From: Tabrizicola sp. | Lineage (GTDB): Bacteria > Pseudomonadota > Alphaproteobacteria > Rhodobacterales > Rhodobacteraceae | Assembly: GCF_016793705.1 (NCBI RefSeq) | Contig: NZ_JAEULO010000068.1 | Location: forward strand, 124,001 to 188,000 | Length of the DNA stretch: 64,000 nt | Direction of reading: 5' to 3' | Shown: in pieces, positions 16,640 to 34,901 of the stretch | Position numbering within the stretch: position 1 is the stretch's first letter | How the letters are laid out: each line of letters begins with the position of its first letter | Position numbers and translations under genes: made by a program | Notes under the pieces: generated by a model | Database searches by the model: none | The model's input: the letters and a program-made list of their open reading frames with translations, nothing else | What the model was told of the DNA's origin: nothing

Positions 16640-16694
16640 CTGGTCCTCTGAGGTCATGCGGTCCGAAGGTCGTTCGCTTCTGGTGACATGGCCC

Positions 16695-16712
16695 TGTCAC
16701 ACCGGTGTGACA
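16695..16712. promoter_or_regulatory. 18-base perfect palindrome between phnM and the DUF1045 gene
   Basis: TGTCACACCGGTGTGACA reads identically on both strands and sits in the 77-95 bases separating the divergent starts. The same bases also read as a degenerate Pho box (CTGTCAC-4-GTGTGAC). It could bind a dimeric repressor, a CRP/FNR-like activator, or PhoB; sequence alone does not decide. Confidence 0.6.
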
Positions 16713-16734
16713 AAGCTGGTCTACCGGGGCTCAC

Positions 16735-18601: not shown

Positions 18602-18605
18602 GGGC

Positions 18606-19391
18606 TTACACCTGCAGGACGGAGGATACGAGAAGCTGCGTATAGGCGTGCTGCGGATCGTCGAGCACCTGATCGGTCAGGCCCTGCTCCACCACCCGGC
18701 CGGATTTCATCACCATCAGCCGGTGCGCCAGAAGCCGCACGACGGCAAGGTCATGGGTCACGATGATCACCGATAGGCCCAGGTCCCGGACCAGCCCGCG
18801 CAGGAGGTCCAGAAGGCGTGCCTGCACGCTGACATCGAGGCCGCCTGTGGGTTCATCCATGCACACCAGCCGCGGCGAGGTGACGAGATTCCGCGCGATC
18901 TGGAGCCGCTGCTGCATGCCCCCTGAAAATGCCGAAGGCCGGTCATCCACCCGGTCGGCGGCAATCTCGACCCGGCCCAGCCAGTCCAACGCCTTGCCCC
19001 GGATCTCGCCATAGTGCCGGGCCCCCACGGCCATCAGCCGCTCGCCCACGTTACCGCCCGCGCTGACGCCCATCCGCAGCCCGTCGCGCGGGTTCTGGTG
19101 GACATAGGCCCAGTCGGTGCGAGAAAGCCGTCGGCGCTCGGTTTCTGACATCGCGAGCACGTCGCGCCCGTCGTAGCTGACGCGACCAAGGTCCGCGCGC
19201 TGATGCCCCGCCAGGCAGGAGAGCAGCGTCGACTTGCCCGAGCCGCTTTCGCCGACAATCCCCAGCACCTCGCCCGGCCAAAGGTCGAAGGACACATCCG
19301 CACAGCCGATCCGCGGCCCATAGCGCTTGGTCAGCCCCTCGACCTTCAGCAAGGGCTGCTCGGTGGCAACCACCTTCCCCATCACCGTCAT
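18606..19391 (-). CDS. phnK: PhnK, C-P lyase core-complex ABC ATPase
   Basis: A 261-residue ABC ATPase resembling dipeptide-transport ATPases: Walker A 'GESGSGKST', signature 'FSGGMQQRLQIARN', Walker B 'LVCMDEPTGGLD'. PhnK docks on PhnJ in the PhnGHIJ core and uses ATP to drive opening or turnover. The start at 19391 overlaps the phnJ stop (ATGA); a longer frame upstream lies inside phnJ and is rejected. Confidence 0.94.
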   Translation of the reverse strand: MTVMGKVVATEQPLLKVEGLTKRYGPRIGCADVSFDLWPGEVLGIVGESGSGKSTLLSCLAGHQRADLGRVSYDGRDVLAMSETERRRLSRTDWAYVHQNPRDGLRMGVSAGGNVGERLMAVGARHYGEIRGKALDWLGRVEIAADRVDDRPSAFSGGMQQRLQIARNLVTSPRLVCMDEPTGGLDVSVQARLLDLLRGLVRDLGLSVIIVTHDLAVVRLLAHRLMVMKSGRVVEQGLTDQVLDDPQHAYTQLLVSSVLQV

Positions 19392-20278
19392 GCCGCGCCC
19401 TCCGGCTCGGGCGCCCAGAGACGCCCCTTCATGCCCCGCGCCCGTCGCCCCGCGCAGTAGTCGGTGTCCGAGCAGACGAACATCCGCCCGCCCTGATCGT
19501 CGGTGATCACCTCGTCCAGGTAGCTGTCCTTTGCCCCGCACAGATCGCAATCATGCGGCGCCTTCGAGGTCTCGAACGGGTGGTCGTCGAAATCGAGGCT
19601 CACGGCCTGGGTCCAGGGCGGCAGTGCATAGATCCGCTGCTCGCGCCCCGCGCCGAAGAGCTGGATCGCCGGATTGCCCGACAGTTTCGGATTGTCGAAC
19701 TTCGGGATCGGCGAAGGGTCCATCACATAGCGCCCCTCGACCCTCACCGGATAGGCGTAGGAGGTCGCGATCTGGCCGTGCCTCGCGATGTCCTCGTAAA
19801 GCTTCACATGCATCAGCCCGTATTCCTCCAGCTCGTGCATCTTCCGCGTCTCGGTTTCGCGCGGTTCCAGAAAACGCAGGGGTTCCGGGATCGGGACCTG
19901 ATAGACAAGGATCTGTCCCTGTTTCAGCGCGGACTCGGGAATGCGGTGGCGGGTCTGGATCACCGTCGCCTGGCCCGTGGCTTCCGTCACCGCGACCCCG
20001 GCCGTGCGCTGGAAGAAGCGGCGGATACTGACGGCGTTCGTCGTATCGTCCGCCCCCTGGTCGATGACCTTGAGCCGGTCCTCGGGGACAAGGCAGGCCG
20101 CCGTCACCTGCACCCCGCCGGTCCCCCAACCGTAGGGCATCGGCATCTCGCGGCTGGCAAAGGGTACCTGATAGCCCGGCACCGCGATCCCCTTCAGGAT
20201 CGCGCGGCGGATCATCCGCTTGGTCTGCTCGTCGAGGTAGGCGAAGTTGTAGGCCCCGGCTGCAAGATGTTCGGTCAT
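19388..20278 (-). CDS. phnJ: PhnJ, radical-SAM carbon-phosphorus lyase
   Basis: A 296-residue protein and the catalytic subunit that breaks the C-P bond of ribose 1-phosphonate 5-phosphate, releasing alkane and a cyclic phosphate. The unusual iron-sulfur cluster motif is intact: Cys244, Cys247, Cys269 and Cys275 (C-x2-C-x21-C-x5-C). The N-terminal 'KGIAVPGYQVPFASREMP' contains the conserved glycine region used as the protein radical site. Length matches the family. It overlaps phnI and phnK by 4 bases on each side. Confidence 0.96.
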   Translation of the reverse strand: MTEHLAAGAYNFAYLDEQTKRMIRRAILKGIAVPGYQVPFASREMPMPYGWGTGGVQVTAACLVPEDRLKVIDQGADDTTNAVSIRRFFQRTAGVAVTEATGQATVIQTRHRIPESALKQGQILVYQVPIPEPLRFLEPRETETRKMHELEEYGLMHVKLYEDIARHGQIATSYAYPVRVEGRYVMDPSPIPKFDNPKLSGNPAIQLFGAGREQRIYALPPWTQAVSLDFDDHPFETSKAPHDCDLCGAKDSYLDEVITDDQGGRMFVCSDTDYCAGRRARGMKGRLWAPEPEGAA

Positions 20279-21381
20279 TCCGCAGCCTCCTGCATTGCCC
20301 CGGCCTCGGCCCGCAGCTTGCGGACCAGCTCCAGCTCGGCCTGGAAGTCGACGTAGTGCGGCAGCTTGATATGTTCGAGGAACCCGGTGGCCTGGATGTT
20401 GTCGCAGTGCATCAGGACGAACTCCTCATCCTGCGCGGGCGCGCCGGTGAAGTCCTCGCCCAGCTCCTGCCAGCGCAGGGCCCGGTCGACGAGGGACATG
20501 GCGATGGCCTTGCGCTCCGACTGGCCGAAGACCAGGCCGTAGCCGCGAGTGAACTGTGGCGGCTCGGTGCGGCTGCCCTTGAACTGGTTCACCGTCTCGC
20601 ATTCGGTCAGCTCGACCTCGCCGACCTCGACCGCGAAGCCCAGCTCGGGGATGTCGACCTCGACCGCGACTGTTCCGATCCGCAACTCGCCGACGAAGGC
20701 ATGGGTCCGACCATAGCCGCGCTGGGTGGAATAGGCCATCGAGAGCACGAAGCCCTCGTCGCCCCGCGTCAGGGCCTGAAGGCGCAGCGCGCGGCTGGCG
20801 GGCAGCTCCATCGGCTCGCGCGTCAGGTCGGGTGGCATCGTGTCGGAAGGCGTCGCTTCTTCGATAAGCCCGTCCTGGTTCAGGAAGCCGGTCACATGCG
20901 GGGCGCGGGTTTCATCTTCACAGCGGCCCTGCCCCTTGAGGGGAGAGGGCGACCCTTGGTCAGGCGTCGCGCCTTCGGCCATCAGCGTGAAATCCAGAAG
21001 CCGGTGCGTATAGTCGAAGGTCGGCCCCAGCACCTGCCCGCCCGGCAGGTCCTTGAAGGTGGCCGAGATGCGCCGGTCCACCGCCATCGCACCCGTATCC
21101 ACCGGACGCGAGGACGCCAGCCGAGGCAGGGTCGTCCGATAGGCACGGATCAGGAAGACCGCCTCGATCAGGTCGCCGCGCGCCTGCTTGATCGCGAGCG
21201 CGGCGAGGTCGGGGTCGTAGAGCGAGCCCTCGGCCATCACCCGGTTCACCGCCAGCTTCATCTGCTCGCGGATCTGGGGGATGGTCAGCTCGGGCACCGC
21301 CGGATTCCCCCGGCGCTCCTCGGCCAACCACTCATGCGCATTGTCGATGGCGCGTTCGCCACCCTTCACGGCCACATACAT
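20275..21381 (-). CDS. phnI: PhnI, C-P lyase subunit (phosphonate ribosyltransferase component)
   Basis: A 368-residue subunit that with PhnG, PhnH and PhnL displaces adenine from ATP with phosphonate; PhnI also has nucleosidase activity. Family features include N-terminal 'MYVAVKGGERAIDNAH' and C-terminal 'MHCDNIQATGFLEHIKLPHY', the latter supplying metal ligands. Residues about 139-156 look like an in-frame insertion, 'PSPLKGQGR', encoded by a strong DNA hairpin. It is otherwise the usual length. The ATG at 21381 shares its A with the phnH stop (TGATG). Confidence 0.94.
   Translation of the reverse strand: MYVAVKGGERAIDNAHEWLAEERRGNPAVPELTIPQIREQMKLAVNRVMAEGSLYDPDLAALAIKQARGDLIEAVFLIRAYRTTLPRLASSRPVDTGAMAVDRRISATFKDLPGGQVLGPTFDYTHRLLDFTLMAEGATPDQGSPSPLKGQGRCEDETRAPHVTGFLNQDGLIEEATPSDTMPPDLTREPMELPASRALRLQALTRGDEGFVLSMAYSTQRGYGRTHAFVGELRIGTVAVEVDIPELGFAVEVGEVELTECETVNQFKGSRTEPPQFTRGYGLVFGQSERKAIAMSLVDRALRWQELGEDFTGAPAQDEEFVLMHCDNIQATGFLEHIKLPHYVDFQAELELVRKLRAEAGAMQEAAE
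20926..20950. repeat. GC-rich hairpin inserted in frame within phnI
   Basis: The + strand reads GCCCT-g-CCCCT-tg-AGGGG-ag-AGGGC, a nested inverted repeat with two 5-bp arm pairs. It encodes phnI residues 144-152. Such CCCCTTGAGGGGAGAGGG units occur as interspersed palindromes in many GC-rich genomes, so this may be a palindromic element that entered a coding region without breaking the frame. Confidence 0.5.
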
Positions 21382-21950
21382 CAGATCGCCTCCACGCGGG
21401 TGGACCGGGGCAGACCGGCGATGCGGTCGCCGGCGGTGAAAAGCGTGTCGAAGCCCAGGGGGAACAGCGCACGGTTGGCACGGAAGGCCGCCGTCTCGGG
21501 CAGGTTCAGCCAGGTTGCCGTCTCGATCCCCGGGCCGGTCAGACAGGCGCCGTGGTTCACCAGCCGGTCGCATTCGACGATCAGCGTGGCCGAACGGTCG
21601 GGATAGTCGGGCTGGCCGATCCGGAAGCGGAGGGACGGTTGCAGCGCCTCCCAGGTGCCGACCGCAAAGTCTGCGTCTTCGGCGACAGCCAGCGGCGCGC
21701 CGATGTGGAAGGCCACCCAGTCGCGCACCGCAGGGCAGTCGGCCTCGCCCGCCAGATGCAGGCGTGTCGTCGGGTCGGCAAGGACCAGAAGCGCCACGCC
21801 CGCCGCAATGGACAAGGGGGCGGGCGGGGTCGCTCCCTGGACGCGCCGGATCGTGCCCGGACGCGCCATTGCCTCCAGAATCTCGCGGAAGGCCCGGGCG
21901 GACTGGACGGGGGCCTCGGTGAAGCCGCCCTCAAGCGCGTCGGTGATCAT
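21381..21950 (-). CDS. phnH: PhnH, C-P lyase subunit
   Basis: A 189-residue PLP-transferase-fold protein without cofactor site, forming part of the PhnGHIJ core. Typical motifs are 'FREILEAMARPGTIRRV' near residue 21 and 'PGIETATWLNLP' near 143. It is required for forming ribose 1-phosphonate 5-triphosphate. The start overlaps phnG by 4 bases (ATGA) and the stop shares a base with the phnI start. Confidence 0.94.
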   Translation of the reverse strand: MITDALEGGFTEAPVQSARAFREILEAMARPGTIRRVQGATPPAPLSIAAGVALLVLADPTTRLHLAGEADCPAVRDWVAFHIGAPLAVAEDADFAVGTWEALQPSLRFRIGQPDYPDRSATLIVECDRLVNHGACLTGPGIETATWLNLPETAAFRANRALFPLGFDTLFTAGDRIAGLPRSTRVEAI

Positions 21951-22396
21951 TTGTCCTCTCCCCGGACCATGGTGAAGAAATCGACCCTGGTGCCTGCGGC
22001 CTTCGCAGCTCGGGTGGCCCGGGCGGCCCGGGCTTCGGCCTCCAGCGGCTGCACAACCCGCGACATCAGCTCGGCGGCCTGGCCGGTCTGCATCAACGCA
22101 TCCACCGCCGCCGCCCGCAGCGCATGGCCCTTGTCGCGGCCCTGCACCCAGGCATGCCCGACCTCACCGGTCGCAAGCCGGACCGACGCGCGTGTGACTG
22201 TCATCTCGCCAAGATTGAAGGCCGAGCCGGTGGCCCCGACCCGACCCCGCACCATCACCGCGCCGATCTCGGGCTGGCGAAGGACGGTATGCGCCGGAAG
22301 GTGCGGCACAAGTGCCACCAGACGGGCGGGCGGAGCCTTGGCAAGCGTGGCCATCCAGGTCTTGCGGGCCAGAGGCGAGGCGTCGGTCATTTTCAT
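21947..22396 (-). CDS. phnG: PhnG, C-P lyase subunit
   Basis: A 149-residue first subunit of the phnGHIJKLN operon. 'PEIGAVMVRGRVGATGSAFNLGEMTVTRASV' (a continuous match, split by a turn) and 'GHAWVQGRDKGHALRAA' are family hallmarks. It binds the PhnI-PhnH dimer in the core complex. The ATG at 22396 is preceded by GAGATG. The operator-like repeat at 22415-22442 lies about 20 bases upstream. Confidence 0.93.
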   Translation of the reverse strand: MKMTDASPLARKTWMATLAKAPPARLVALVPHLPAHTVLRQPEIGAVMVRGRVGATGSAFNLGEMTVTRASVRLATGEVGHAWVQGRDKGHALRAAAVDALMQTGQAAELMSRVVQPLEAEARAARATRAAKAAGTRVDFFTMVRGEDK

Positions 22397-23828: not shown

Positions 23829-25151
23829 TTACGTCCCCTTGATCAGCTTGCGGCGGAGCCAGCCCGACAAGCTGTCCATCAGCATCACCATCAGGACGAT
23901 GAGGACCATGTAATAGGCCACTTCCTCCCAGTCCTTCTGTGTGATGATCGCCTGGGTGAGAAGAAGGCCGATCCCGCCGCCGACGATCGCGCCGATCACG
24001 GTCGCGCTGCGGGTGTTGGATTCCAGATAATACAGCACCTGCGACAGCAGCACCGGTGTGATCTGCGGGATCACCCCGAACCGGGCGCGTTGCAGGGCGC
24101 CGGCACCGGTGGAGCGGATGCCCTCGACCTGCCTCTCGTCGATGTTCTCCAGCGCTTCCGAGAAGGTCTTTCCGAAGGTGCCGGTATCGGTGATCGCGAT
24201 GGCGATGGCGCCGGTCATCGGGCCGGGACCGAAGGCGCGCGAGAGGATGATCGTCCAGATCAGGCCGTCGACGCCGCGGATGAAGTCGAATATGCGGCGC
24301 GCGGCAAAGCGCAGGGGGCCAAGCGGGTTGAAATTCCGTGCCGCGAGGAAGCCCAGCGGCAGGGCGACCAGCGCGGAAGACATCGTGCCGAGGAAGGCCA
24401 TCAGAACCGTCTCGAACATCGCCCAGGCCACGTCGCCGTGACGCCACATCCGGTTGGTCCAGAAGTCATGCGCCATGTGGACAAGGTTCGACTGCGCCGG
24501 GTCGATCCGGTCAGCGCTGGCGGCCAACCTCACCAGTTCGCCGAAGGACTTGCCGTAGAACGGGCTGTCGAGGGTAAAGAACCACAGCTCCCAGCCAGGT
24601 TCATACTTGAAGGTCTCGACCTTGGAGCGAGAATAGCTGAAACGGCCGTGGTCGGTGGTGACAGAGACCTTGTTCTCGGACACGCTGATCCAGTCGGGGA
24701 TCGGCTGCGGCGCGGTCAGGACCGGCTTGCCGCCTTCGGGCCGGATGTCGATGGTGCCGTAAGCGGGGACGACGTAGCGTGCGCCCTGGTCGTCGTAGGT
24801 GATCACGTGACCGTCACCAAGGTCGATCGTCGTGGTGGTGCCGTTGATCGTGACCCAGTCGGGCAGCATGCCGTCGGGGTAGGTGCCCTTGGCCTCGCCC
24901 TCGATGGCGACGGTGACGCGGTCTGTCCGGTTGTCGCGGGTGACATGGGTCTTGTGCGACCAGAAGTCGCCCAGAAGAATCGCGGCATTGTCGAGGCGGG
25001 CGCGCTGCACGAGGCCAACGATGTCGAAGCTGATCGCAGCGTAGACGAGATAGGCCAGGATCGCGGCGGGGATGGCGAAGGCCAGCCGGGTCCTGGCCGC
25101 GAAGCGACGGGTCACCGTGTCGGCGAGACTGGCGGCGGGCGTTGCGGTCAT
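23829..25151 (-). CDS. phnE: PhnE, phosphonate ABC permease, long form with periplasmic insert
   Basis: A 440-residue permease. One N-terminal helix (about 20-42) is followed by about 150 residues of hydrophilic, beta-rich sequence, including 'HKTHVTRDNR' and 'TIDLGDGHVITYDDQGARY'. A five- to six-helix ABC permease domain follows with EAA-type loop 'EALENIDERQVEGIRSTGA'. The extra domain lies outside the membrane and may contact PhnD. I chose 25151; an in-frame ATG at 25193 has a GGGGGAGGA stretch but very close spacing. It pairs with the shorter PhnE upstream, giving a heterodimeric channel. Confidence 0.9.
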   Translation of the reverse strand: MTATPAASLADTVTRRFAARTRLAFAIPAAILAYLVYAAISFDIVGLVQRARLDNAAILLGDFWSHKTHVTRDNRTDRVTVAIEGEAKGTYPDGMLPDWVTINGTTTTIDLGDGHVITYDDQGARYVVPAYGTIDIRPEGGKPVLTAPQPIPDWISVSENKVSVTTDHGRFSYSRSKVETFKYEPGWELWFFTLDSPFYGKSFGELVRLAASADRIDPAQSNLVHMAHDFWTNRMWRHGDVAWAMFETVLMAFLGTMSSALVALPLGFLAARNFNPLGPLRFAARRIFDFIRGVDGLIWTIILSRAFGPGPMTGAIAIAITDTGTFGKTFSEALENIDERQVEGIRSTGAGALQRARFGVIPQITPVLLSQVLYYLESNTRSATVIGAIVGGGIGLLLTQAIITQKDWEEVAYYMVLIVLMVMLMDSLSGWLRRKLIKGT

Positions 25152-25255
25152 TGGGTCGCCCCTTGCGCTGGCATTGGCGTCGCCCCTCGCCATTCCTCCC
25201 CCCTGGTCGGCGGGCGATGGGTTTGGGGGGCTGCGGTGCAGATGAGGTGCATGAC

Positions 25256-26134
25256 TCAGGTCCCTTGGACCAGCTTCTGCCGGTAGCGGTCGGAAATCTG
25301 GTCGATCACGACGATGGTCACGAACAGAAGCGCGAAGATGGCGACGACTTCGTCATATCGGCCCTGGCCCCATTGCATCGCGATCTTGAGGTCATGCCCG
25401 ATGCCGCCCTCGCCGACGAAGCCGAGGATTGCGCTGGCGCGGACGTTGATCTCGAACCGCAGGAGCGCGTAGCTGAGCCAGTTCGGCGCGACTTGCGGCA
25501 GGACAGCCAGCCACATGCGCTGGCCCCAGGTGGCACCGACGGAGGCCAGCCCTTCGACCGGTTTCAGGTCGGCGTTCTCGGCCACTTCGGAGAAGAGCTT
25601 GCCCAAGGCGCCGCCGGTGTGAAGCGCGATGGCAATCACGGCGGGAACCGGACCGCCGCCGAGCATGAAGATCAGCACAAGCGCGATGACGATTTCAGGG
25701 ATCGCGCGCAGGGCGTCCATGAGGCGGCGAAAGAGCGGGATCAGGGCGGGCCAGCGGGCAAGGCCGCGCGTCGCAAGAAGCGAAAGCGTCATTGCGGCCA
25801 GCCCGCCGAGGAGGGTGGCGACGGCGGCGATGTTCAGTGTCTCGATCAGGGCGGGGATGTGGTCCAGGAAGATGCCGGGCAGAACCGCGCGCTTTTCCCA
25901 GGCTTCGGACAGGACTTCCAACGGGAAGGCGAAGATCTGGTGCAATCCGTCAAGAAAGCCGCCCGCGTTGCGGTCCTCGGCCAGCCGCCAGCCTGAAGCC
26001 ATGAGCGCCACGAAGACCACCAGCAGGATGCCGCCATACATCCGCTTGCGGCGGATCATGTCGAGATAGGCCTCGCGCGGGTCGGCAAGGTTCGGGCGGC
26101 GGCCCGGTTCGGGCCCGAAGGCGGCGTCAACCAT
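25256..26134 (-). CDS. phnE: PhnE, phosphonate ABC permease, short form
   Basis: A 292-residue inner-membrane permease with six predicted helices and a conserved cytoplasmic loop 'EVAENADLKPVEGLASVGA' contacting the PhnC ATPase. 'GFVGEGGIGHDLKIAMQ' near the end is the PhnE signature. The start at 26134 lies 64 bases after phnD; the open frame continues upstream through the hairpin without a likely start. The next gene encodes a second, longer PhnE. Confidence 0.92.
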   Translation of the reverse strand: MVDAAFGPEPGRRPNLADPREAYLDMIRRKRMYGGILLVVFVALMASGWRLAEDRNAGGFLDGLHQIFAFPLEVLSEAWEKRAVLPGIFLDHIPALIETLNIAAVATLLGGLAAMTLSLLATRGLARWPALIPLFRRLMDALRAIPEIVIALVLIFMLGGGPVPAVIAIALHTGGALGKLFSEVAENADLKPVEGLASVGATWGQRMWLAVLPQVAPNWLSYALLRFEINVRASAILGFVGEGGIGHDLKIAMQWGQGRYDEVVAIFALLFVTIVVIDQISDRYRQKLVQGT

Positions 26135-26157
26135 GGAGCGGTCCGGGAAAAGGGAAA

Positions 26158-26189
26158 GGCCGGACCCCGGGAAGCGTCGGGGTCCGGCC
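26158..26189 (-). terminator. Strong intra-operon hairpin after phnD (attenuator or 3' stabiliser)
   Basis: GGCCGGACCCCG and its exact complement CGGGGTCCGGCC flank an 8-base loop, giving a perfect 12-bp stem beginning 10 bases after the phnD stop. There is no T-run, so it is unlikely to be a full terminator. In this position hairpins commonly protect the mRNA of the abundant binding protein from 3' decay and lower permease expression. Confidence 0.7.
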
Positions 26190-26198
26190 GGGCAAGGC

Positions 26199-27095
26199 TC
26201 AGGTGCCTTCCTGCATCCGGCGGGCGGCAAGGATGCCGTCATAGGCGGAATGTTCGACCGGGACGAAGTCCTTGGCCTCGCCCGCAGCGACGGCATAGGC
26301 GCATTCGGGGTCGGTCTCCCAGAGGTCGGCGGTGAGCTGGGTCACCTTGTCCTTCACGTCCTGCGGGAGCGCCTTGCGGACCACCATCGGGCCTTCCGGG
26401 ATCAGCGCCGAGCGCCAGATTTCCACCAGGTTCGACATATCGACCAGCCCTGCGTCGGCGGCCTTGCGGAAGGCGCCGGAATTGTAGCCGTCCTCCCAGT
26501 TGCCGAGGCCATCGGCCCAGGACACGCCCGCATCGAAATCGCCGTTCGCGACGCCGACGATGGTCTGCTCATGCCCGCCCGACATCTTCACTTCGCCGAA
26601 GTAGGACTTCAGGTCACCGTATTTCGCGGCCAGTTCGGCGCCGGGGACAAGGTAGCCGGAGGTGGAGTTCGGATCGGCGAAAGCGAAGACCTTGCCCTTG
26701 GCCTCGTCCATCGAGGTGATGCCGGTGTCCTTGCGGGTGAAGCCGATCGAGTAATAGCCGGTCGAGCCGTCCATGTTCTGCTTGGTAAGCTTGACCTCCA
26801 CCGCTTCCGGGTCGGTCAGGTAGATCTTGGCATACCCCGAGGCACCCAGCCAGGCATAGTCGAGCGTGCCGCCCAGAAGGCCCTGGATCACCCCGTCATA
26901 GTCGGCGGGCGTGAAGAGCTTCACGGGGACACCCAGGGCTTCTTCGACCTTGGCGCGGAAGCATTCGTTCGAGGTCAGGCGGTCCTGGGCGTTCTCGCCG
27001 CCGAGGATGCCGATGTTGAACCCGGTGATTTCCTGCGCGCTCGCGGCAGAGGCGAGGATCGCGGTCAGGGCGGTTGCGGTCAGCAGCTTGTGCAT
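26199..27095 (-). CDS. phnD: PhnD, periplasmic phosphonate-binding protein
   Basis: A 298-residue exported solute-binding protein. Signal peptide 'LLTATALTAILASAASAQ' is followed by 'FNIGILGGENAQDRL' and 'TPADYDGVIQGLLGGTLDYAWLG', the phosphonate-binding lobe of the PhnD family. It captures alkyl- or aminoalkylphosphonates and delivers them to the PhnE pair. Start 27095 is preceded by GGAG. It sits between phnC (40 bases away) and a hairpin. Confidence 0.94.
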   Translation of the reverse strand: MHKLLTATALTAILASAASAQEITGFNIGILGGENAQDRLTSNECFRAKVEEALGVPVKLFTPADYDGVIQGLLGGTLDYAWLGASGYAKIYLTDPEAVEVKLTKQNMDGSTGYYSIGFTRKDTGITSMDEAKGKVFAFADPNSTSGYLVPGAELAAKYGDLKSYFGEVKMSGGHEQTIVGVANGDFDAGVSWADGLGNWEDGYNSGAFRKAADAGLVDMSNLVEIWRSALIPEGPMVVRKALPQDVKDKVTQLTADLWETDPECAYAVAAGEAKDFVPVEHSAYDGILAARRMQEGT

Positions 27096-27135
27096 GGGGT
27101 CTCCATGAAGGTTGAGGCCAGGGTGGCCAGGGAAG

Positions 27136-27954
27136 TCACGACAGCATGAGATCCGCGTAGCTGCGGTCTGCCGTGGTGTCTGCGGGGATCGCGGTGGAGG
27201 TCGCGGCCTCGTTGAAGCTCGCATCCGCGCCGTAGATGTCGCGGGCGACGCCGGTGGACAGTTGGTCGGGCGTGCCGTCAAAGACGATGCGGCCGTCGCG
27301 CATGCCGATCACCCGGTCGCAATAGCGGCGGGCGGTGTCGAGCGTGTGGAGGTTGGCGATGACCATCCGCCCGTCCTCGACGTTGATGCGCTTCAGCGCG
27401 TCCATGACCACCTGGGCGTTCATCGGGTCGAGCGAGGCGATGGGTTCGTCGGCGAGGATGATCTTCGGGTCCTGCATCAGGGCGCGGGCGATGGCAACGC
27501 GCTGCTGCTGGCCGCCGGACAGGGCCTCGGCGCGTTTCGGGGCCTGTTCGGCGATGCCGAGGCGATCGAGGATCTCCAGCGCGCGCAGGATGTCCGCGCG
27601 GGGCCAGAGGTTGAACATCGTCTGAAGCGTGGAGCGGCGGTTGAGGATGCCGTGCAGCACGTTGGAGGCGACGTCCATCCGGGGCACCAGGTTGAACTGC
27701 TGGAAGATCATCGCGCAGTGCGATTGCCAGGCGCGGGCCTCGGCGCCCTTCAGGGCGAGGACGTTGCGGCCGTTCACCCGGATCTCGCCCGAGGTGGCGT
27801 CGAGGAGCCGGTTCATCATGCGCAGGAAGGTGGATTTCCCGGCGCCCGAGCGGCCGATGATGCCCACGAAGGCCGGGCGGTCGATCTGGAAGCTGATGCC
27901 GTCGACGGCTGCCTTCTGGCCGAACATCCGTGTCACGCTCCGCACATCCAGCAT
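27136..27954 (-). CDS. phnC: PhnC, phosphonate ABC transporter ATPase
   Basis: A 272-residue ATPase with Walker A 'GRSGAGKST', signature '[15 protein letters not shown]', Walker B '[13 protein letters not shown]' and a switch His in 'NLHTLD'. It powers the PhnE channel. It is the first gene of phnC-phnD-phnE-phnE-acyltransferase. A CTGTCAT Pho half-site lies 46 bases upstream, suggesting phosphate-starvation control. Confidence 0.95.
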
Positions 27955-27999
27955 CGGTCATCCCTTCGCTTTGGTCTGGCACGGTCGTAGCGGGCGGAT

Positions 28000-28006
28000 A
28001 TGACAG
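28000..28006 (-). promoter_or_regulatory. Pho-box half-site upstream of phnC
   Basis: The minus strand reads CTGTCAT, an exact match to one repeat of the PhoB consensus (CTGTCAT-N4-CTGTCAT). The second repeat is poor, so this is a single good half-site. Position fits an activator of the phnCDEE operon. Confidence 0.45.
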
Positions 28007-28039
28007 TCGTCCGAAGGGTGGGTGAAGCTTGTGTGACTT

Positions 28040-28948
28040 CTACCACCTGATGTGGCTGGGCCAGACGAAGACCTCGTCGGGGTCCGCCAGCGCGGGAACG
28101 GCCAGCGCCATGCAACGGCGGCGAAGCTCGGTCGCCACCCGGTTGCGGTCGATCTGTGCGAGTTCGGAGGCCGAGATCGGCGCGCCGATCCGCAGGTTGA
28201 CCGGCTGGCCGATACGGCGCCGGGTTTCGTGGAAGATCAGCGCGACGCGCAGCGGATAGGCGGTATGGCTTGCGATCTGGAAGAGGCGCGAGTTCTGGCC
28301 GGAGAAATGCACCGGCAGCGTGGTCACGCCGGGAATCGTCGCCAGCCGCCCGACGAAGGGATGCCAGGGCGAATCCACCGCGCGGCCCGTAAGCGGCCGG
28401 TTCGCGGTCGCCACGCCCCCGGCCGGGAACACCGCAACGACCTTGCCCGCCTGGAGAAGCGCCGCCGCCCGCCGCCGGGTCTCGGCCGTCAGCCGTCGCG
28501 CCTCGGGCGTGCCGGAGAAATCGACGGGGAGCAGATAGGGGTCGACCTCGGGCACCCGGCAGAGCAGGCTGTTGGTCAGAATGCGGACGTTGCCGCGAAG
28601 CTGCATCCCCAGGTGGCCGATGGTCAACCCGTCGACGACGCCGAAGGGATGGTTCGCCACCAGAAGAAGACCGCCCGAGGCCGGAAGGGCATTCAGGTGG
28701 TCTTCCCCCGTGAGGATACGCGGCTGGATATCCAACTGGCGCAGCGCGGCAGAGAAGACGGGCACGCCGGGCATTCCGTCGCTCCACACCCAGTCGAGGT
28801 AGAGCCTTCGCAGCTTAGGCTGGCCGGTCAGCATTTCGACCGCCCGGATCAGGCCGCGTCGAAAGCGGGACTGGCCGGGGTGGGAATAGGTGAAATCGAC
28901 CTGGGGCGCGACCGGGAGACTGTCGAAGTTGGCAAGCGCGTCGAACAT
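28040..28948 (-). CDS. Lysophospholipid acyltransferase family protein (PlsC/hemolysin-like)
   Basis: A 302-residue protein with an acyltransferase motif 'LLVANHPFGVVDGLTIG' near residue 95 (His, acidic pair) and 'VVAVFPAGGVATANRP' near 165, as in the hemolysin-like PlsC branch that includes OlsA-type enzymes. These acylate a lysolipid at the inner membrane with acyl-ACP or acyl-CoA. It ends the second phn operon, 11 bases after the divergent phnM. The location suggests lipid remodelling under phosphate limitation or use of phosphonolipid-derived material, but the acceptor is unknown. Confidence 0.82.
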   Translation of the reverse strand: MFDALANFDSLPVAPQVDFTYSHPGQSRFRRGLIRAVEMLTGQPKLRRLYLDWVWSDGMPGVPVFSAALRQLDIQPRILTGEDHLNALPASGGLLLVANHPFGVVDGLTIGHLGMQLRGNVRILTNSLLCRVPEVDPYLLPVDFSGTPEARRLTAETRRRAAALLQAGKVVAVFPAGGVATANRPLTGRAVDSPWHPFVGRLATIPGVTTLPVHFSGQNSRLFQIASHTAYPLRVALIFHETRRRIGQPVNLRIGAPISASELAQIDRNRVATELRRRCMALAVPALADPDEVFVWPSHIRW

Positions 28949-28959
28949 CTTGGCTCTCC

Positions 28960-30195
28960 TCAGAGGGCAGGTTCGGGTTGGGGGAGTGAGGGCAAGGCGG
29001 AATAGCCGGGACGACCGGAAACCCAGGTTCGCAGAGGGGCCGGGGCATGGCCTTCGGGCCAGTCGAGAAGAAGGAGGTCCGCCCGCTGACCGGGCGCGAT
29101 GCGGCCCCGGTCGGCAAGGCCCATGGCACGGGCGGGATTCAGCGAGACGAGTTTCCAGAGCGCGGGAAGCGGAGCCACCCGGTCGGTATGCAGGCGGACC
29201 ATCGCTCCCAGCATGGCCGGGTAGAAATAGTCCGAGGCGAGGATGTCGCAGAGTCCTCGCGCGATCATCTGCGCGGCGCCGGGGCTGCCAAGGTGACTGC
29301 CGCCGCGCATGGCGTTCGGCGCGCCGAGGACGATGGCATCGCCTGCCTCGCGTGCGGCATGGAAGACCCGGTCATGCATCGGAAACTCGGCTACGGTGGC
29401 ACCGAGGCTGCGGTAGTAGCCGCGCGTCTCGGCCTGGCTGTCGTCGTGGGAGAGCATCGGGGCCCTGTGCGACCGGGCCAGTGCGGCCATCCGGGCGATA
29501 TGGGCGGGGACTTCGCCACGCCGGGTCCAGACGCCGGTCAGGAGGGCCACGTAGTCTTCGGGCAGGACATGGGCGCGACGGGCCTGGTCGGCCATCTTCT
29601 TCAGGAAGCGCGGGGCGTCGAAGGGCGTCACCGGATAGGGATCGGCCTGGTCGAAGGGCCGGTCCTGCACGGCCACGTCGGGGTGCAGAAGCATCGAGGT
29701 CGTATGGTCGTTGAACGCCAGCGCCGGGCGGTCGGGGCCAGAGAGGACATGGGCGATCAGCGGCTCCGCCTCATGGCAGAAGGTCTCCCACCGCAGTTGC
29801 AGGCGGTTCTCGGCGGTAAGACGGGGGCGAAGGCGTTCCAGCGCGCGAACAATCTGCCAGCCGGTATCCACGCTGCGCAGGCCCGGCTCCCAGGACAGGG
29901 TAAGGGCATGGTAGGCGGTCGCGATGCCGTTCGAGGCAAGCTGGCGGTCGGTTTCCAGAAGCGCGGTTTCCACCGGCACCATGACGCCGGGGCGCGGCAT
30001 GACTTGCCGCTCGAAAGCGTCGCCATGGATGTCGACGAAGGCCGGCGCCAGCAGGCGCCCCCGGGCAGGAACAAGGCTTGCCCCGTCGGGGGCCACATCG
30101 ATGCCGGTGATCCGCCCGCCCTCGATGCGGACCGAGGCGGTCTCGACCCGGTCTTCCAGGATGACACGGGCGCCTTCGATCAGTTCCGCGGTCAT
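28960..30195 (-). CDS. Second, divergent PhnM-like amidohydrolase
   Basis: A 411-residue amidohydrolase of the PhnM family but clearly different from the one at 15494. Metal motifs are 'FVDIHGDAFERQ' near residue 60 and 'MLSHDDSQAE' near 255; 'SDYFYPAMLGAMV' replaces 'SDYVPSSLL'. An insert near residues 110-215 ('TTSMLLHPDVAVQDRP' and neighbours) is unlike canonical PhnM. It may process a different ribosyl- or nucleotide-linked phosphonate. The ATG at 30195 overlaps the methyltransferase stop (ATGA). A longer start at 30222 lies inside that gene. Confidence 0.85.
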   Translation of the reverse strand: MTAELIEGARVILEDRVETASVRIEGGRITGIDVAPDGASLVPARGRLLAPAFVDIHGDAFERQVMPRPGVMVPVETALLETDRQLASNGIATAYHALTLSWEPGLRSVDTGWQIVRALERLRPRLTAENRLQLRWETFCHEAEPLIAHVLSGPDRPALAFNDHTTSMLLHPDVAVQDRPFDQADPYPVTPFDAPRFLKKMADQARRAHVLPEDYVALLTGVWTRRGEVPAHIARMAALARSHRAPMLSHDDSQAETRGYYRSLGATVAEFPMHDRVFHAAREAGDAIVLGAPNAMRGGSHLGSPGAAQMIARGLCDILASDYFYPAMLGAMVRLHTDRVAPLPALWKLVSLNPARAMGLADRGRIAPGQRADLLLLDWPEGHAPAPLRTWVSGRPGYSALPSLPQPEPAL

Positions 30196-30860
30196 GTCAG
30201 ACGCTCCGCCAGAAGATGCCAATGCCAGGAGCCGGGCTTGACATGGGGCCGGTCGAACAGCGTGAAGACCTCGAACCCCCAGAGCAGCGACAGAAGGTCG
30301 GTGCCGGTACAGAAGTAATGCGGGTGAACCTTGTCGCCCTCGCCCTCGAAGACCCAGGTGTTGCGGCTGATCTCCCGGCCCCTGGCCTTGGCCTGTTCGA
30401 CCGGCAGGCGGCGGGCGGACAGCATTGTCGCCATGAACGTACCGCCGGGCCGCAGGACGCGGGCGATCTCGGCAAGGGTGCGGCGGACGACGGATTCGTC
30501 GCCATGGTAGACGACGTTCCAGGCGAGCACGTGGTCGAAGCTGGCGGTCTCGAAGGGCAGGTCGGTCATCGGGGCCTGTACGGTGTCGATGGTCAATCCC
30601 TTGGTGAAGGCCGCAGCGGCAACGGCGGCCGTTGCGGCCTCGGATGCGTCAAGCGCGGTGACGTGGTGCCCGTCTGCCGCAAAGGCCAGCGCATGACGGC
30701 CGATCCCCGCGCCAAGGTCCAGTATGTGCGAACCGGGGGGAAGCGTGCTGACATGATCGATGGCCCATGGCTCGGGCATCGCCCAGGGCGAGGTGCCGTC
30801 GGCCTTCTGCCACTCGGCGTTCCAGTAGAGATGCGCGGTGTCGGTGAGCATGTGGTTCAT
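30192..30860 (-). CDS. Class I SAM-dependent methyltransferase in phn operon 2
   Basis: A 222-residue Rossmann-fold methyltransferase: motif I 'HILDLGAGIGRHALAFA' near residue 45, 'VTALDASEAA' (acidic ribose-binding residue), 'FDHVLAWNVVYHGDE' (motif IV region) and 'IARVLRPGGTFMATML'. It resembles TehB-like small-molecule methyltransferases. The substrate is unknown; a methylated phosphonate or phosphate ester is suggested only by the operon. The ATG at 30860 overlaps phnE (ATGA) and the stop overlaps the second phnM. Confidence 0.85.
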   Translation of the reverse strand: MNHMLTDTAHLYWNAEWQKADGTSPWAMPEPWAIDHVSTLPPGSHILDLGAGIGRHALAFAADGHHVTALDASEAATAAVAAAAFTKGLTIDTVQAPMTDLPFETASFDHVLAWNVVYHGDESVVRRTLAEIARVLRPGGTFMATMLSARRLPVEQAKARGREISRNTWVFEGEGDKVHPHYFCTGTDLLSLLWGFEVFTLFDRPHVKPGSWHWHLLAERLT

Positions 30861-31651
30861 ATCAGCTTCCTGCGGATCCAGCCCGAGCCCTGCTCGACGG
30901 CGATGACGAGGGCGAGCATCATCAGGATGATCGCGAGGGCCTCGTCGTAGTTGAACAGGTCGAAGGCGACCTTGAGGTCCACCCCGATGCCACCCGCGCC
31001 GACAAGGCCCAGGGCGGCGGAACCGCGCACGGATTTCTCCAGCGCGAACAGAGACGTGGCGGTGAACGAGGGCAGGCAGGCCGGGATGACGGCGGAGCCG
31101 ATGATCCCCAGCCGGGACGCCCCGATGGCACGAAGCGCGTCCTGTGGGCCGGGGTCGGTTTCCTCCATCGCTTCTGCGAAGAAGCGCCCCGCGAAGCCGA
31201 TCTTGTCGACCATGATCGCCATCACCCCGGCGGCGGGGCCGAGACCGACGATGATGATGAAGATGATGGCCCAGACCAGGTCTGGCACCGTGCGGAAAAG
31301 CGCGATGAGGGCGCGCGCGGCGTGGCGGACCAGCGGGTGCGGCGACAGCCGGTCGGTGGCGAGGATCGCGAAGGGAAGTGCGAGGATCAGCCCCAGAAAG
31401 CAGCCGGCGACGGCCATCTGCAGGGTCTCCAGAAGCTTCCAGCCGATGGGCACGATGCGGGTGAAGTCGGGCGGGAACATCTGGGTCAAAAGGCCCGAGG
31501 GCGCGAAGAGCCGCGCGATGCCGCTGCCCAGCTTGCCGGGCGCCGGGGCGGTGGCCGCGAGCGAAGCTGCGACCAGCGCCAGCACGGCCAGAAGCGCGGC
31601 ATATTCCACCAGGCTGCGGTGCTGGAAGCGGGCGGGGGCGAGGGTGGTCAT
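30857..31651 (-). CDS. phnE: PhnE-family ABC permease of phn operon 2
   Basis: A 264-residue permease with about six helices. The EAA-like loop 'EAMEETDPGPQDALRAIGA' and 'GLVGAGGIGVDLKVAFD' identify the PhnE family. It is the only permease of this system, so it presumably works as a homodimer, unlike the phnE pair at 23829-26134. It overlaps both phnC (4 bases) and the methyltransferase gene (4 bases). Confidence 0.9.
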   Translation of the reverse strand: MTTLAPARFQHRSLVEYAALLAVLALVAASLAATAPAPGKLGSGIARLFAPSGLLTQMFPPDFTRIVPIGWKLLETLQMAVAGCFLGLILALPFAILATDRLSPHPLVRHAARALIALFRTVPDLVWAIIFIIIVGLGPAAGVMAIMVDKIGFAGRFFAEAMEETDPGPQDALRAIGASRLGIIGSAVIPACLPSFTATSLFALEKSVRGSAALGLVGAGGIGVDLKVAFDLFNYDEALAIILMMLALVIAVEQGSGWIRRKLI

Positions 31652-32448
31652 GCGGCCTCCGCCTGATCGAAGAACTGCCGCAGGCTGGCGGCATTGGCGC
31701 GCCGGGTGGGAAGGTCCAGCGCGATCCGGCCGTTGGCAAGGCCGAGGATGCGGTCGGAAAAGCGCAAGGTGTGTTCCAGCCGGTGCGAGATGACCAGAAG
31801 CGACAGCCCCTCTTCACGCACCAGGCCGAGGAGCAGGGACATCACCTCTTCCCCGGTCTGCGGGTCCAGACTCGCGTCCGGCTCGTCGGCCAGGATGAAG
31901 GTAGGGCGCTGCATCAGCATTCGGGCGATGGCGATACGCTGCTGCTGGCCGCCCGACAGGCTGTCGACCCGCACGAGCGCGCGATCGGCAAGGCCCACGC
32001 GGGCCAGACAGGCCATCGCCTCGTCCCGGACTGCCGCCGGGGCCAGCGATTGCGTCCAGGCGCGGGGGCCGGTCATCCGCGCCTGCACGCCGTGGATCAC
32101 GTTCGACAGGGCCGAGAGGCGGGGCACGAGGTTGTGGCGCTGCCAGACGATGCCGACCTCGGCCCGCAGGCGGCGGAGCGCGCGGGGCGGAAGGGCGCGG
32201 ATGTCCCGCCCGAGCATGCGGATCTCGCCACCCGAGGGTTCGATCAGCCGGACGAGGCAGCGCAGGAGCGTGGACTTGCCCGACCCGTTGGCCCCGATCA
32301 GCGCCGTCGCCTGGCCGGGGGCCAGCGTGAAGCTCAGGTCCTGAAGCACGGTGCGGCCTGGGAAGTCCTTGGTCAGCCCCCGGACGGCAAGGACCGGCTC
32401 TGCCAGGGCAGAACCGGCCAGCGTCCGCGGCGGAAGCGGTGCGTTCAC
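31648..32448 (-). CDS. phnC: PhnC-family ABC ATPase of phn operon 2
   Basis: A 266-residue ATPase with Walker A 'GANGSGKST', signature '[15 protein letters not shown]', Walker B 'FILADEPDASLDP' and 'ISHRLEH' as the His switch. The most sensible start is GTG at 32448, 4 bases after the upstream phnD stop; an in-frame ATG at 32517 lies inside phnD. It overlaps phnE by 4 bases. Confidence 0.9.
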   Translation of the reverse strand: MNAPLPPRTLAGSALAEPVLAVRGLTKDFPGRTVLQDLSFTLAPGQATALIGANGSGKSTLLRCLVRLIEPSGGEIRMLGRDIRALPPRALRRLRAEVGIVWQRHNLVPRLSALSNVIHGVQARMTGPRAWTQSLAPAAVRDEAMACLARVGLADRALVRVDSLSGGQQQRIAIARMLMQRPTFILADEPDASLDPQTGEEVMSLLLGLVREEGLSLLVISHRLEHTLRFSDRILGLANGRIALDLPTRRANAASLRQFFDQAEAA

Positions 32449-32452
32449 CGGG

Positions 32453-33319
32453 TCACTCGCCGACGAATTCGGTGAACTCGGTGATGCCGATGTTCTCGAA
32501 CATCTTGCGCACCACATCGTAGTCGGCGTCGGTCACGGTCGGGTTGAACGTGCCGCCGATGTATTTGGCGTTCTCTTCGGTCGAGGTCAGCGCCTCCAGG
32601 ATTTCGGCGCCGTGATCGGCGAAGGTCCGGCGGACGGTCTCCACCACCTCGGGCGGGACCTTCTCCGAGGCGAGGAGGATGTCGTCGGGAAGCTGGTCGC
32701 CCTTTGCGAGAACCCGGAACTTCTGGTCGGGGAACTTGCCGGTGATGCTGTCGAGATGGGTGCGGTTCAGGCCGATCCCGGCGATCTCGCCCTTGATCAG
32801 CGCCTCGACCGCGACATTGCGGTTCAGGAAGACGGGCTGGTAATCTACCGCATAGGTCAGCCCCGCCTTGGCCAGCAGGTCGACCGGGCCGAGGTGCTGC
32901 GAGGTCGAGCCGATCTCGCCGAACGAGATGATCTGGCCCTTCAGGTCGGCGGGCGTCTTGACCGGGCTGTCCTCCAGCACGACGACGGTGGAGTAATAGT
33001 CCGGGCGCACCCAGGTCACGACCGGCTGCGCATCGAGCCGGGCGTTGAAGACCACATATTCCGCCGGGCCGGTCAGCACGAAGTCGATCTGGTCCGCCGC
33101 CATCGCCTCGACGGCCACCGTGCGGCCCGAGACCGGGAAGAACTCGACCTTCAGGCCCGAGGCGACCTCGAACGCCTCCTTGAACGGCCCCATCTCGCGC
33201 TGAAGCGCTTCCATCCCGTCGATGTCGGTGACGGCGAAGCGGATGGTCTCCTGAGCGGCGCAGGCGGTTGCCGAGACGATTGCAGCGGCGAGCAGGCCGG
33301 GGGCAAGAAGGTGTTTCAT
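32453..33319 (-). CDS. phnD: PhnD-family periplasmic binding protein of phn operon 2
   Basis: A 288-residue exported binding protein: signal peptide 'LLAPGLLAAAIVSATACAAQ', then 'FAVTDIDGMEALQRE' and 'ADQIDFVLTGPAEYVVF', matching the phosphate/phosphite/phosphonate binding family. It differs strongly from the PhnD at 26199, so another ligand is likely (phosphite, a phosphonate or a phosphate ester). I chose 33319, which gives a clean signal peptide; 33358 is less likely. A Pho-box-like site lies about 70 bases upstream. Confidence 0.9.
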   Translation of the reverse strand: MKHLLAPGLLAAAIVSATACAAQETIRFAVTDIDGMEALQREMGPFKEAFEVASGLKVEFFPVSGRTVAVEAMAADQIDFVLTGPAEYVVFNARLDAQPVVTWVRPDYYSTVVVLEDSPVKTPADLKGQIISFGEIGSTSQHLGPVDLLAKAGLTYAVDYQPVFLNRNVAVEALIKGEIAGIGLNRTHLDSITGKFPDQKFRVLAKGDQLPDDILLASEKVPPEVVETVRRTFADHGAEILEALTSTEENAKYIGGTFNPTVTDADYDVVRKMFENIGITEFTEFVGE

Positions 33320-33374: not shown

Positions 33375-33569
33375 CGCGACGGAGAGGTCACAGGACTGCG
33401 ACAGTCCCTGAATGGACCGAACAAGGTGCCGATCGACCGGGTGAGGTCCATCGCGAAGGCTCCGGAAGTGGGCCGCGCATATCTGCGCCTGGACCCGGCA
33501 CGAGGCATCGACGCGCAGGGCGAGCCGGTTCCCGGACTCGAATCGGAAAACTCCGATCTTCGCGGATAG
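33375..33569 (+). pseudogene. Short open stretch with host-like codon use, possible gene remnant
   Basis: A 64-codon open frame with no ATG ends in TAG at 33567. Its translation (for example 'KVPIDRVRSIAKAPEVG' and 'RLDPARGIDAQGEPVPG') uses ordinary GC-ending codons and resembles a genuine C-terminus, but I recognise no family. GTG at 33426 is a possible start without a ribosome-binding site. It overlaps the Pho-box-like site, so chance is a real alternative. The rest of 33320-33701 holds no gene I can support. Confidence 0.2.
33387..33404 (-). promoter_or_regulatory. Pho-box-like direct repeat upstream of phn operon 2
   Basis: The minus strand reads CTGTCGC-agtc-CTGTGAC, two 7-base repeats separated by 4 bases as in the PhoB box (CTGTCAT-N4-CTGTCAT), with two mismatches in each half. 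Position and spacing fit activation by PhoB, but binding is not shown. Confidence 0.5.
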
Positions 33570-34792: not shown

Positions 34793-34901
34793 CGCGAAAA
34801 TTCCGGGGGCGGCGGGTGCCTTGTATGGCACCCCGTTGGCGGCAACACTTTCGCGCGAAACGGGGGCAGGCGCAAGGGCCGGAGCCCCGGTTGCGGCGCG
34901 G

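What the first reader, a model, noticed from the sequence alone, without database searches (positions are those of the whole stretch)
28040..33319. Second phn operon: PhnDCE transporter, methyltransferase, divergent PhnM and lipid-type acyltransferase
Six same-strand genes are translationally coupled (three ATGA overlaps, gaps of 4 and 11 bases). Transport genes for a phosphorus compound are fixed to a SAM methyltransferase, an unusual PhnM paralogue with an insert, and a PlsC-type acyltransferase. No phnG-L duplicates occur, so the module must either feed the neighbouring C-P lyase or act on something else, such as methylated phosphonates or lipid-derived phosphodiesters. I know of no described pathway with this combination.
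Basis: partly seen in the sequence, partly recalled or inferred. Interest (0 to 1): 0.75.

Follow-up and report, generated by a model that had tools for sequence, protein, structure and literature searches.

The report
Methyltransferase-PhnM accessory module for C-P lyase
Next to the enzymes that break carbon-phosphorus bonds, this bacterium carries a real, shared and probably phosphate-starvation-controlled gene set (its own importer, a methyltransferase and a second PhnM enzyme) that looks like an undescribed side branch for using some organic phosphorus compound; the lipid-type gene at its end is a local add-on.

Summary
In detail: six minus-strand genes, 28040-33319, three ATGA overlaps, gaps of 4 and 11 bases. 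The conserved unit is five genes, PhnD2-C2-E2-MTase-PhnM2. Of 83 distinct PhnM2 loci with enough flank, 41 have the complete order, 7 lack the MTase, 1 is partial and 34 have neither directly upstream. The acyltransferase follows PhnM2 in 13 of 83. The MTase has PhnE2 directly upstream in 54 of 54 evaluable loci. PhnJ is in 19 of 20 PhnM2+ family genomes (69 of 149 overall) and 28 of 29 MTase+ family genomes. Pho-box-like repeats precede the operon. PhnM2 is a monophyletic paralogue that keeps the PhnM-invariant residues but has a 22-residue longer, rewritten loop. Its sister type is the only PhnM in two genomes that have C-P lyase. PhnD2 lacks the aromatic residues diagnostic of phosphite and hypophosphite binders. 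Best reading: an accessory branch that imports, methylates and PhnM-processes a substrate for C-P lyase. The substrate is unknown and nothing was tested biochemically. Prior art: an MTase beside phnDCE in a HIMB59 C-P lyase island and a second phnM in a Rhodobacteraceae fosmid, both without assigned function.

The parts
33387..33404 (-). Pho-box-like direct repeat CTGTCGC-AGTC-CTGTGAC, 67 nt upstream of PhnD2; further 11-bp-spaced half-sites follow by eye
   Evidence: 10 of 14 consensus positions. Alone not significant (p 0.095 against shuffles); supported by 59 upstreams of orthologous operons.
32453..33319 (-). PhnD2, periplasmic binding protein of the PhnD/PtxB/HtxB family
   Evidence: PF12974; closest solved relative PtxB 5o2j; D213 invariant and R66 nearly invariant in 35 rows, compared with E. 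coli PhnD
31648..32448 (-). PhnC2, ABC ATPase
   Evidence: TIGR02315 230 bits, below its cut-off of 266
30857..31651 (-). PhnE2, permease
   Evidence: TIGR01097 250 bits, above cut-off
30192..30860 (-). Class I SAM methyltransferase of a distinct, highly conserved family
   Evidence: Pfam Methyltransf_25/11; 48-sequence alignment A5; model pLDDT 94; 54 of 54 evaluable loci with PhnE2 directly upstream
28960..30195 (-). PhnM2, HGD-type PhnM paralogue with a 22-residue longer loop
   Evidence: NF011987 357 bits, over cut-off 253; TIGR02318 286 bits, under 390; monophyletic 99/99; alignment A1; loop; model pLDDT 95
28040..28948 (-). PF19576 acyltransferase related to the N-terminal half of OlsF and to GlsA; lineage-specific tail gene
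   Evidence: follows PhnM2 in 13 of 83 loci
23829..27954 (-). Neighbouring first phosphonate transporter phnC1-D1-E1a-E1b
   Evidence: NCBIfam
15494..22396 (-). Neighbouring C-P lyase region with canonical PhnM1 (15494-16657), PhnL (17918-18601), PhnJ (19388-20278), PhnI (20275-21573)
   Evidence: PhnM1 and PhnL by NCBIfam; PhnJ and PhnI by Pfam; the remaining phn genes of the stretch were not scanned one by one

Best explanation
A probably Pho-regulated accessory branch of the C-P lyase pathway. PhnD2-C2-E2 imports a phosphonate-type compound that the main PhnC1D1E1E1 importer does not serve well. The MTase methylates that compound or an intermediate made from it. PhnM2 does the PhnM-type hydrolysis (removal of pyrophosphate from the ribosyl-phosphonate 5-triphosphate) for that substrate, and the product joins the normal PhnJ step. 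The acyltransferase is a Pi-starvation lipid enzyme of the OlsF/GlsA kind that shares the operon in one lineage and is not a catalytic step of the branch. Shown: conservation, linkage to C-P lyase, Pho-box-like sites as a group signal, retained PhnM residues, altered binding pocket. Inferred: import of a phosphonate, the methylation target, the PhnM2 reaction and the role of the acyltransferase.
For: Five-gene order in 41 of 83 loci. MTase behind PhnE2 in 54 of 54 evaluable loci; of 29 MTase+ family genomes, 27 have PhnM2 directly downstream. PhnM2 with PhnJ 19 of 20 against 50 of 129 (Fisher p 1.2e-6); MTase+ family genomes with PhnJ 28 of 29; 4 of 4 in other families. In G606 PhnDCE2-MTase and an HGD-type PhnM lie beside phnG-H-I-J-K-L and phnN, with no other PhnM in the genome; G779 also has a single, HGD-type PhnM; in G467 the M2-like gene overlaps phnN. 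PhnM-invariant residues are kept, while the canonical loop DHTPGQxQ is in 0 of 110 PhnM2, 9 of 9 canonical and 14 of 25 type-2 PhnM. Pho-box-like sites: 18 of 59 upstreams score 11 or more of 14, against a shuffled mean of 0.8, maximum 3.
Against: 34 of 83 PhnM2 loci have neither transporter nor MTase directly upstream (of these L050 has PhnDCE2 downstream and L099 a PhnE2 8.4 kb away), and 7 have the transporter without the MTase, so the parts are separable. Only 13 of the 20 PhnM2+ family genomes have the MTase. The 83 loci include ones fetched because they have the MTase, which raises the share with full order. G172 and G699 have PhnDCE2-MTase without a PhnM2-clade gene. PhnJ was not found in 4 of 50 further PhnM2+ genomes. 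No substrate is indicated by sequence: PhnD2 also lacks the ligand His of PtxB (N168 there), and the nearest folds of the MTase and PhnM2 are generic. The Pho box of the window is not significant alone. No expression or biochemical data.
Confidence: 0.5

Rival explanations
1. PhnM2 is only a redundant PhnM isozyme and the second PhnDCE a redundant importer; the MTase, acyltransferase and other tails are unrelated members of the phosphate-starvation response that hitchhike.
For: PhnM2 without transporter or MTase directly upstream in 34 of 83 loci; variable tail genes; HGD-type PhnM serves alone in G606 and G779.
Against: MTase-PhnE2 linkage is 54 of 54; the MTase is very conserved (67% mean column identity in 48 sequences); the PhnM2 loop is rewritten in a conserved way.
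Confidence: 0.22
2. Capping branch, in analogy to PhnO: the MTase N-methylates an aminoalkylphosphonate so that C-P lyase can take it or is spared its toxicity.
For: Asp205 of E. coli PhnD, which contacts the amine of 2-AEP (PMC12718374, passages), aligns with PhnD2 D213, invariant in 35 rows; a Rhodobacteraceae C-P lyase fosmid did not grow on aminomethylphosphonate or 1-aminoethylphosphonate (PMC3840354, passages).
Against: The partner Glu177 is not kept, and the hypophosphite binder HtxB has the same Asp, so it does not prove an amine.
Confidence: 0.13
3. Lipid-derived phosphodiester or glycerophosphate utilisation.
For: OlsF/GlsA-like acyltransferase; plcP- and agt-like genes beside PhnDCE2-MTase in G172 and G467.
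Against: The acyltransferase follows PhnM2 in only 13 of 83 loci; no phosphodiesterase belongs to the core; the window genome has its own olsBA-like pair.
Confidence: 0.07
4. Phosphite route: PhnDCE2 imports phosphite, which the MTase turns into methylphosphonate for C-P lyase.
For: PtxB is the closest solved relative of PhnD2; the Rhodobacteraceae fosmid B3_TF_MPn_2 did not grow on phosphite (PMC3840354, passages).
Against: Capping Tyr208 of PtxB and Trp52 of HtxB, needed for P-H contacts (PMC5700983, passages), align with Asp213 and Arg66, and His160 with Asn168. P-methylation by this fold is unprecedented to my knowledge.
Confidence: 0.05
5. Arsenic side-function: handling arsenicals taken up under phosphate starvation.
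For: ArsK-like exporter behind PhnM2 in 8 of the 41 complete loci, 11 of 83 in all; aquaporin-family genes nearby in G172 and G467.
Against: Only one invariant Cys in the MTase, C184; the ArsK-like protein scores 290 against a cut-off of 400.
Confidence: 0.03

Closest known systems
fGIphn-A phosphonate island of HIMB59 (PMC10734472, passages and section 9 read)
   Same: phnDCE and phnCDEE flanking phnGHIJKLM, with an MTase among the auxiliary genes; G699 (1.4 Mb; order PhnDCE2-MTase-HAD-phnG...M-phnCDE) looks like the same island, with the same MTase family
   Different: No PhnM2-clade gene and no acyltransferase seen there; no function was proposed in the parts I saw; that G699 is HIMB59 is my inference
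B3_TF_MPn_2 Rhodobacteraceae C-P lyase fosmid (PMC3840354 and PMC5649143, passages read)
   Same: Second phnM-like gene (phnM1) and a transferase in a C-P lyase cluster; role left open
   Different: No PhnDCE2-MTase is mentioned in the passages; its phnM1 may be the other HGD-type paralogue (L039:15543-16727), which I could not check
Canonical PhnM of E. coli C-P lyase
   Same: Homology over 367 columns, invariant H/D/E/R residues, C-P lyase linkage
   Different: HGD in place of HTD motif, 22-residue longer rewritten loop, own clade
PtxB / HtxB phosphite and hypophosphite binding proteins
   Same: Family, STS loop; LPND motif shared with HtxB
   Different: Both aromatic P-H contacts replaced, and the ligand His of PtxB

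Membership tests
Canonical PhnM (TIGR02318) | Score above the curated cut-off of 390.55 bits | tested here: not met
   285.6 bits
Canonical PhnM (TIGR02318) | Residues invariant across PhnM types (H57, D59, E62, R68, R135, E137, D163, H164, H250, D251, D322) | tested here: met
   A1, 23 sequences; A6, 73 sequences
Canonical PhnM (TIGR02318) | Hydrolysis of ribosyl-phosphonate 5-triphosphate | not testable with these tools
   Indirect only: HGD-type sisters are the sole PhnM in G606 and G779 (next best hit 29 and 33 bits; placement)
C-P lyase-linked accessory module | PhnJ in the same genome | tested here: met
   19 of 20 PhnM2+ and 28 of 29 MTase+ family genomes; 46 of 50; the one family genome without PhnJ (G091) still has a canonical PhnM over cut-off
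Phosphite (PtxB) or hypophosphite (HtxB) binding protein | Aromatic residue for the P-H...pi contact (Tyr208 or Trp52; PMC5700983, passages) | tested here: not met
   Asp213 and Arg66 at these positions
2-AEP-binding PhnD | Glu177 and Asp205 around the amine (PMC12718374, passages) | tested here: inconclusive
   Asp205 equivalent invariant, Glu177 equivalent not kept
ArsM arsenite methyltransferase | Several conserved cysteines (recalled) | tested here: not met
   One invariant Cys, C184
OlsF / GlsA O-acyltransferase | Curated cut-off (620 and 260 bits) | tested here: not met
   108.4 and 64.9 bits
PF19576 acyltransferase | Gathering score 27 and the NHPxG..DG block | tested here: met
   45.8 bits; block in 13 of 13 rows
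Pho regulon | Pho box upstream (consensus recalled) | tested here: inconclusive
   Clear group signal in 59 upstreams, but the window site alone is not significant and regulation itself was not tested

The most novel reading that the evidence does not exclude
The C-P lyase pathway has an unrecognised methylation branch: a dedicated importer delivers a phosphonate that is methylated by SAM before or during coupling to ribose, and a dedicated PhnM isozyme with a rebuilt substrate loop processes the resulting ribosyl triphosphate. Its products (methylated amines, esters or hydrocarbons) would be new outputs of phosphonate breakdown.
Probability: 0.3. Interest if true: 0.8.

Novelty: new variant of a known kind. 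Interest (0 to 1): 0.55.

Why it matters
C-P lyase drives phosphorus recovery and methane release in phosphate-poor water. A conserved methyltransferase with its own transporter and a PhnM isozyme, preceded by Pho-box-like sites and seen from Rhodobacter-like strains to a small-genome lineage that resembles HIMB59, means that part of the pathway is unassigned. It gives directly testable questions: what PhnD2 binds, what the MTase methylates, and why a second PhnM is kept. It also shows that part of the genes annotated 'PhnM' form a separate clade and should not be counted as pathway markers without care.

Tried and rejected
Lipid pathway for all six genes: rejected for the core because the acyltransferase follows PhnM2 in only 13 of 83 loci, and because 332 of 388 family genomes have some acyltransferase matching the profile while only 12 have one of the high-scoring group, above 340 bits. 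I fetched 8 stretches around acyltransferases of that group that are not behind PhnM2: in 2 (G285, G022) the gene is directly upstream of phnC1 while the PhnM2 operon is on another contig; G155 looks the same but its contig ends there; 3 lie by a yebC gene (one confirmed by Pfam; two by their identical first residues), and in one of these, G368, PhnM2 is the convergent neighbour; 2 lie elsewhere.

Missing OlsA: rejected, an olsBA-like pair is present elsewhere in the genome (the OlsA name is my reading). Phosphite transport: the nearest solved relative is PtxB, but both diagnostic aromatic residues are replaced. ArsM: rejected on cysteines.

Fold searches of the MTase and of PhnM2 gave only generic relatives. 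Papers: 8 searches gave no functional description of the combination; most subscription papers are not in that library. Unresolved lead: R. pomeroyi SPO0891 'phnM' is listed among reduced-fitness mutants (PMC10041152, passages); I could not tell whether it is PhnM2.

Rows dropped before counts: of 114 loci with PhnM2, 106 were distinct and 83 had at least 4 kb upstream and 3 kb downstream. L064 and L074 have no PhnM2 in the fetched stretch and were left out of that census. L058 (49% identity, 45%) was excluded from PhnM2 by a 50% identity line. The scan was capped at its best 80 loci. The 50 genomes were 50 of those 80 and overlap with the family genomes; L125 appears to be the same genome as G091.


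Full report
What is there. The six genes lie on the minus strand exactly as described, with three ATGA overlaps and gaps of 4 and 11 bases. They encode a PhnD-family binding protein, PhnC ATPase, PhnE permease, class I SAM methyltransferase, PhnM-like amidohydrolase and PF19576 acyltransferase. Downstream lie a first phosphonate transporter and a C-P lyase region with its own canonical PhnM. The genome has two full-length PhnM genes and one PhnJ.

Conservation. PhnM2 orthologues at 50% identity or more occur in 20 of 149 same-family genomes, and 13 of these 20 have the MTase. The MTase occurs in 29 of 394 family genomes; in 27 of the 29 PhnM2 follows directly. A scan of named genomes kept its best 80 loci, in Rhodobacterales, Rhizobium and Hoeflea among others. 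In 83 distinct PhnM2 loci with enough flank, 41 have PhnD2-C2-E2-MTase-PhnM2, 7 have the transporter without the MTase, 1 is partial and 34 have neither directly upstream; of the 34, L050 has PhnDCE2 downstream and L099 a PhnE2 8.4 kb away. Some of the 83 were fetched because of their MTase, so 41 of 83 overstates the natural share. In 54 of 54 evaluable loci the MTase has PhnE2 directly upstream (2 more were too close to a contig end). Two family loci have PhnDCE2-MTase without PhnM2 next to it: in G368 PhnM2 lies elsewhere, and in G172 the best match to the PhnM2 profile (142 bits) belongs to another HGD-type paralogue.

The tail varies. After PhnM2 in the 41 complete loci come the acyltransferase (11), a xylose-isomerase-like TIM barrel (11), an ArsK-like exporter plus TIM barrel (6), the exporter alone (2), a second methyltransferase (2) or none of these (9). 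The acyltransferase is therefore lineage-specific. Its high-scoring group (above 340 bits) occurs in 12 of 388 family genomes, while 332 of 388 have some matching protein. In two genomes it sits directly upstream of phnC1 without the PhnM2 operon; in G172 a homologue sits beside plcP- and agt-like genes (these two names are recalled, on top of Pfam Metallophos and glycosyltransferase hits). Its best NCBIfam matches are OlsF and GlsA, far below cut-off. A lipid role under phosphate starvation is plausible but untested; the genome already has an olsBA-like pair.

Link to C-P lyase. PhnJ occurs in 69 of 149 family genomes, in 19 of 20 with PhnM2 and 50 of 129 without (Fisher p 1.2e-6). Of 50 genomes of the named loci, 46 have PhnJ. 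Of the 29 MTase-bearing family genomes, 28 have PhnJ (12 of 13, 16 of 16); four genomes of other families all have it. The exception, G091, still has a canonical PhnM over cut-off, so an assembly gap is likely. A second, lower-scoring PhnJ (about 380 bits) occurs in 8 of 149, 7 of them with PhnM2 (p 2.0e-6).

PhnM2 itself. It forms one clade with 99/99 support, apart from canonical PhnM and from the PhnM of the second C-P lyase type (100/99). It keeps the residues invariant across PhnM types. The canonical loop DHTPGQxQ[FY][RK]D is in 9 of 9 canonical, 14 of 25 type-2 and 0 of 110 PhnM2 sequences, and PhnM2 is 22 residues longer than canonical PhnM between the DH and SHD motifs (85 against 63, medians). 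Outside the family, G606 has an HGD-type PhnM divergent from PhnDCE2-MTase and next to phnG, H, I, J, K, L and phnN. It is the only PhnM in that genome (next best hit 29 bits), and G779 likewise has a single one (next best 33 bits) of the same HGD type, there on another contig than the MTase. The trees put these near PhnM2 (fork 89/84, 91/88, both runs warning of long branches). So the HGD type probably can act as PhnM, but this is an inference from gene content, and the sister for which the spacing could be measured lacks the long loop (G467, 62 residues). In G467 the M2-like gene overlaps phnN.

Binding protein and regulation. PhnD2's closest solved relative is the phosphite binder PtxB. Diagnostic residues from PMC5700983 and PMC12718374 (passages read) were compared on the alignments: the capping Tyr208 of PtxB aligns with Asp213 (invariant in 35 rows), Trp52 of HtxB with Arg66 (nearly invariant) and the ligand His160 of PtxB with Asn168 (nearly invariant). 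Asp213 aligns with Asp205 of E. coli PhnD (my conversion to mature numbering, assuming a 26-residue signal peptide), but the Glu177 partner is not kept. HtxB has the same Asp. Phosphite is thus unlikely and the ligand stays open. Pho-box-like repeats: best scores average 10.1 of 14 in 59 upstreams against 8.6 in shuffles; 18 score 11 or more (shuffled mean 0.8, maximum 3); 45 lie on the coding strand 35-115 nt from the start (shuffled mean 13.2, maximum 22). Related sequences are not independent, so these are not exact probabilities, and the window's own site is not significant alone (p 0.095).

Methyltransferase. 48 aligned sequences share 67% mean column identity, with K177, H179, H181 and H215 invariant and R150, R151 and H213 nearly so, suggesting an anionic substrate (inference). 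The model is confident (pLDDT 94), but the fold search returns many generic small-molecule methyltransferases, with a phosphatidylethanolamine methyltransferase at rank 12.

What is known. PMC10734472 (passages and section 9 read) reports an MTase among auxiliary genes of a HIMB59 island with phnDCE, phnCDEE and phnGHIJKLM; the G699 locus matches that layout and carries this MTase family. PMC3840354 and PMC5649143 (passages) report a second phnM in Rhodobacteraceae C-P lyase clusters, role undefined. PMC9381506 (passages) notes second phnM copies outside the operon. I found no functional account of the module in 8 searches.

Verdict. A real and conserved accessory module of C-P lyase, new as a defined unit and unassigned in function; the acyltransferase is a local passenger or regulon partner.

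Noticed in passing
L040:3392-8125, L046:10710-17894, L117 and others: A second, divergent type of C-P lyase cluster in Rhodobacteraceae (PhnJ about 380 bits against about 475, with its own PhnI, PhnL, PhnM and phnCDEE), often side by side with PhnM2; 8 of 149 family genomes.
   Followed up: partly
L046:9340-10155, L054:6067-6882: A xylose-isomerase-like TIM-barrel gene recurs behind PhnM2, and relatives of it also lie inside some type-2 C-P lyase clusters (L110, L112, L130); no role known to me.
   Followed up: partly
L054:6869-8074: An ArsK-like MFS exporter directly behind PhnM2 in 11 of 83 loci, below the ArsK cut-off (290 of 400 bits).
   Followed up: partly
L039:15543-16727, L121, L178:725-1882: A third PhnM-like paralogue (HGDGFER motif), in L039 beside the hexapeptide acetyltransferase; it may be the phnM1 of the published fosmid B3_TF_MPn_2.
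   Followed up: partly
L074:4805-6774, L174:14074-15839: plcP- and agt-like lipid-remodelling genes and an aquaporin-family gene close to PhnDCE2-MTase in two alphaproteobacteria of different families.
   Followed up: partly
window 27955-28039: A CTGTCAT half-site upstream of phnC1, so the first transporter may have its own Pho-controlled promoter behind the acyltransferase gene.
   Followed up: no
L043:11999-12874, L046:4924-5790 and similar PhnD2 genes; position 142 in the numbering of the window protein: The second residue after the STS loop of PhnD2 is His in the Rhodobacter-like type and Met in most genes of the other type; meaning unknown.
   Followed up: no
window 33702-33778: tRNA-Pro (CGG) on the minus strand just upstream of the operon.
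   Followed up: no
window 33827-35765: Two adjacent EamA-family transporter genes upstream of the operon.
   Followed up: no
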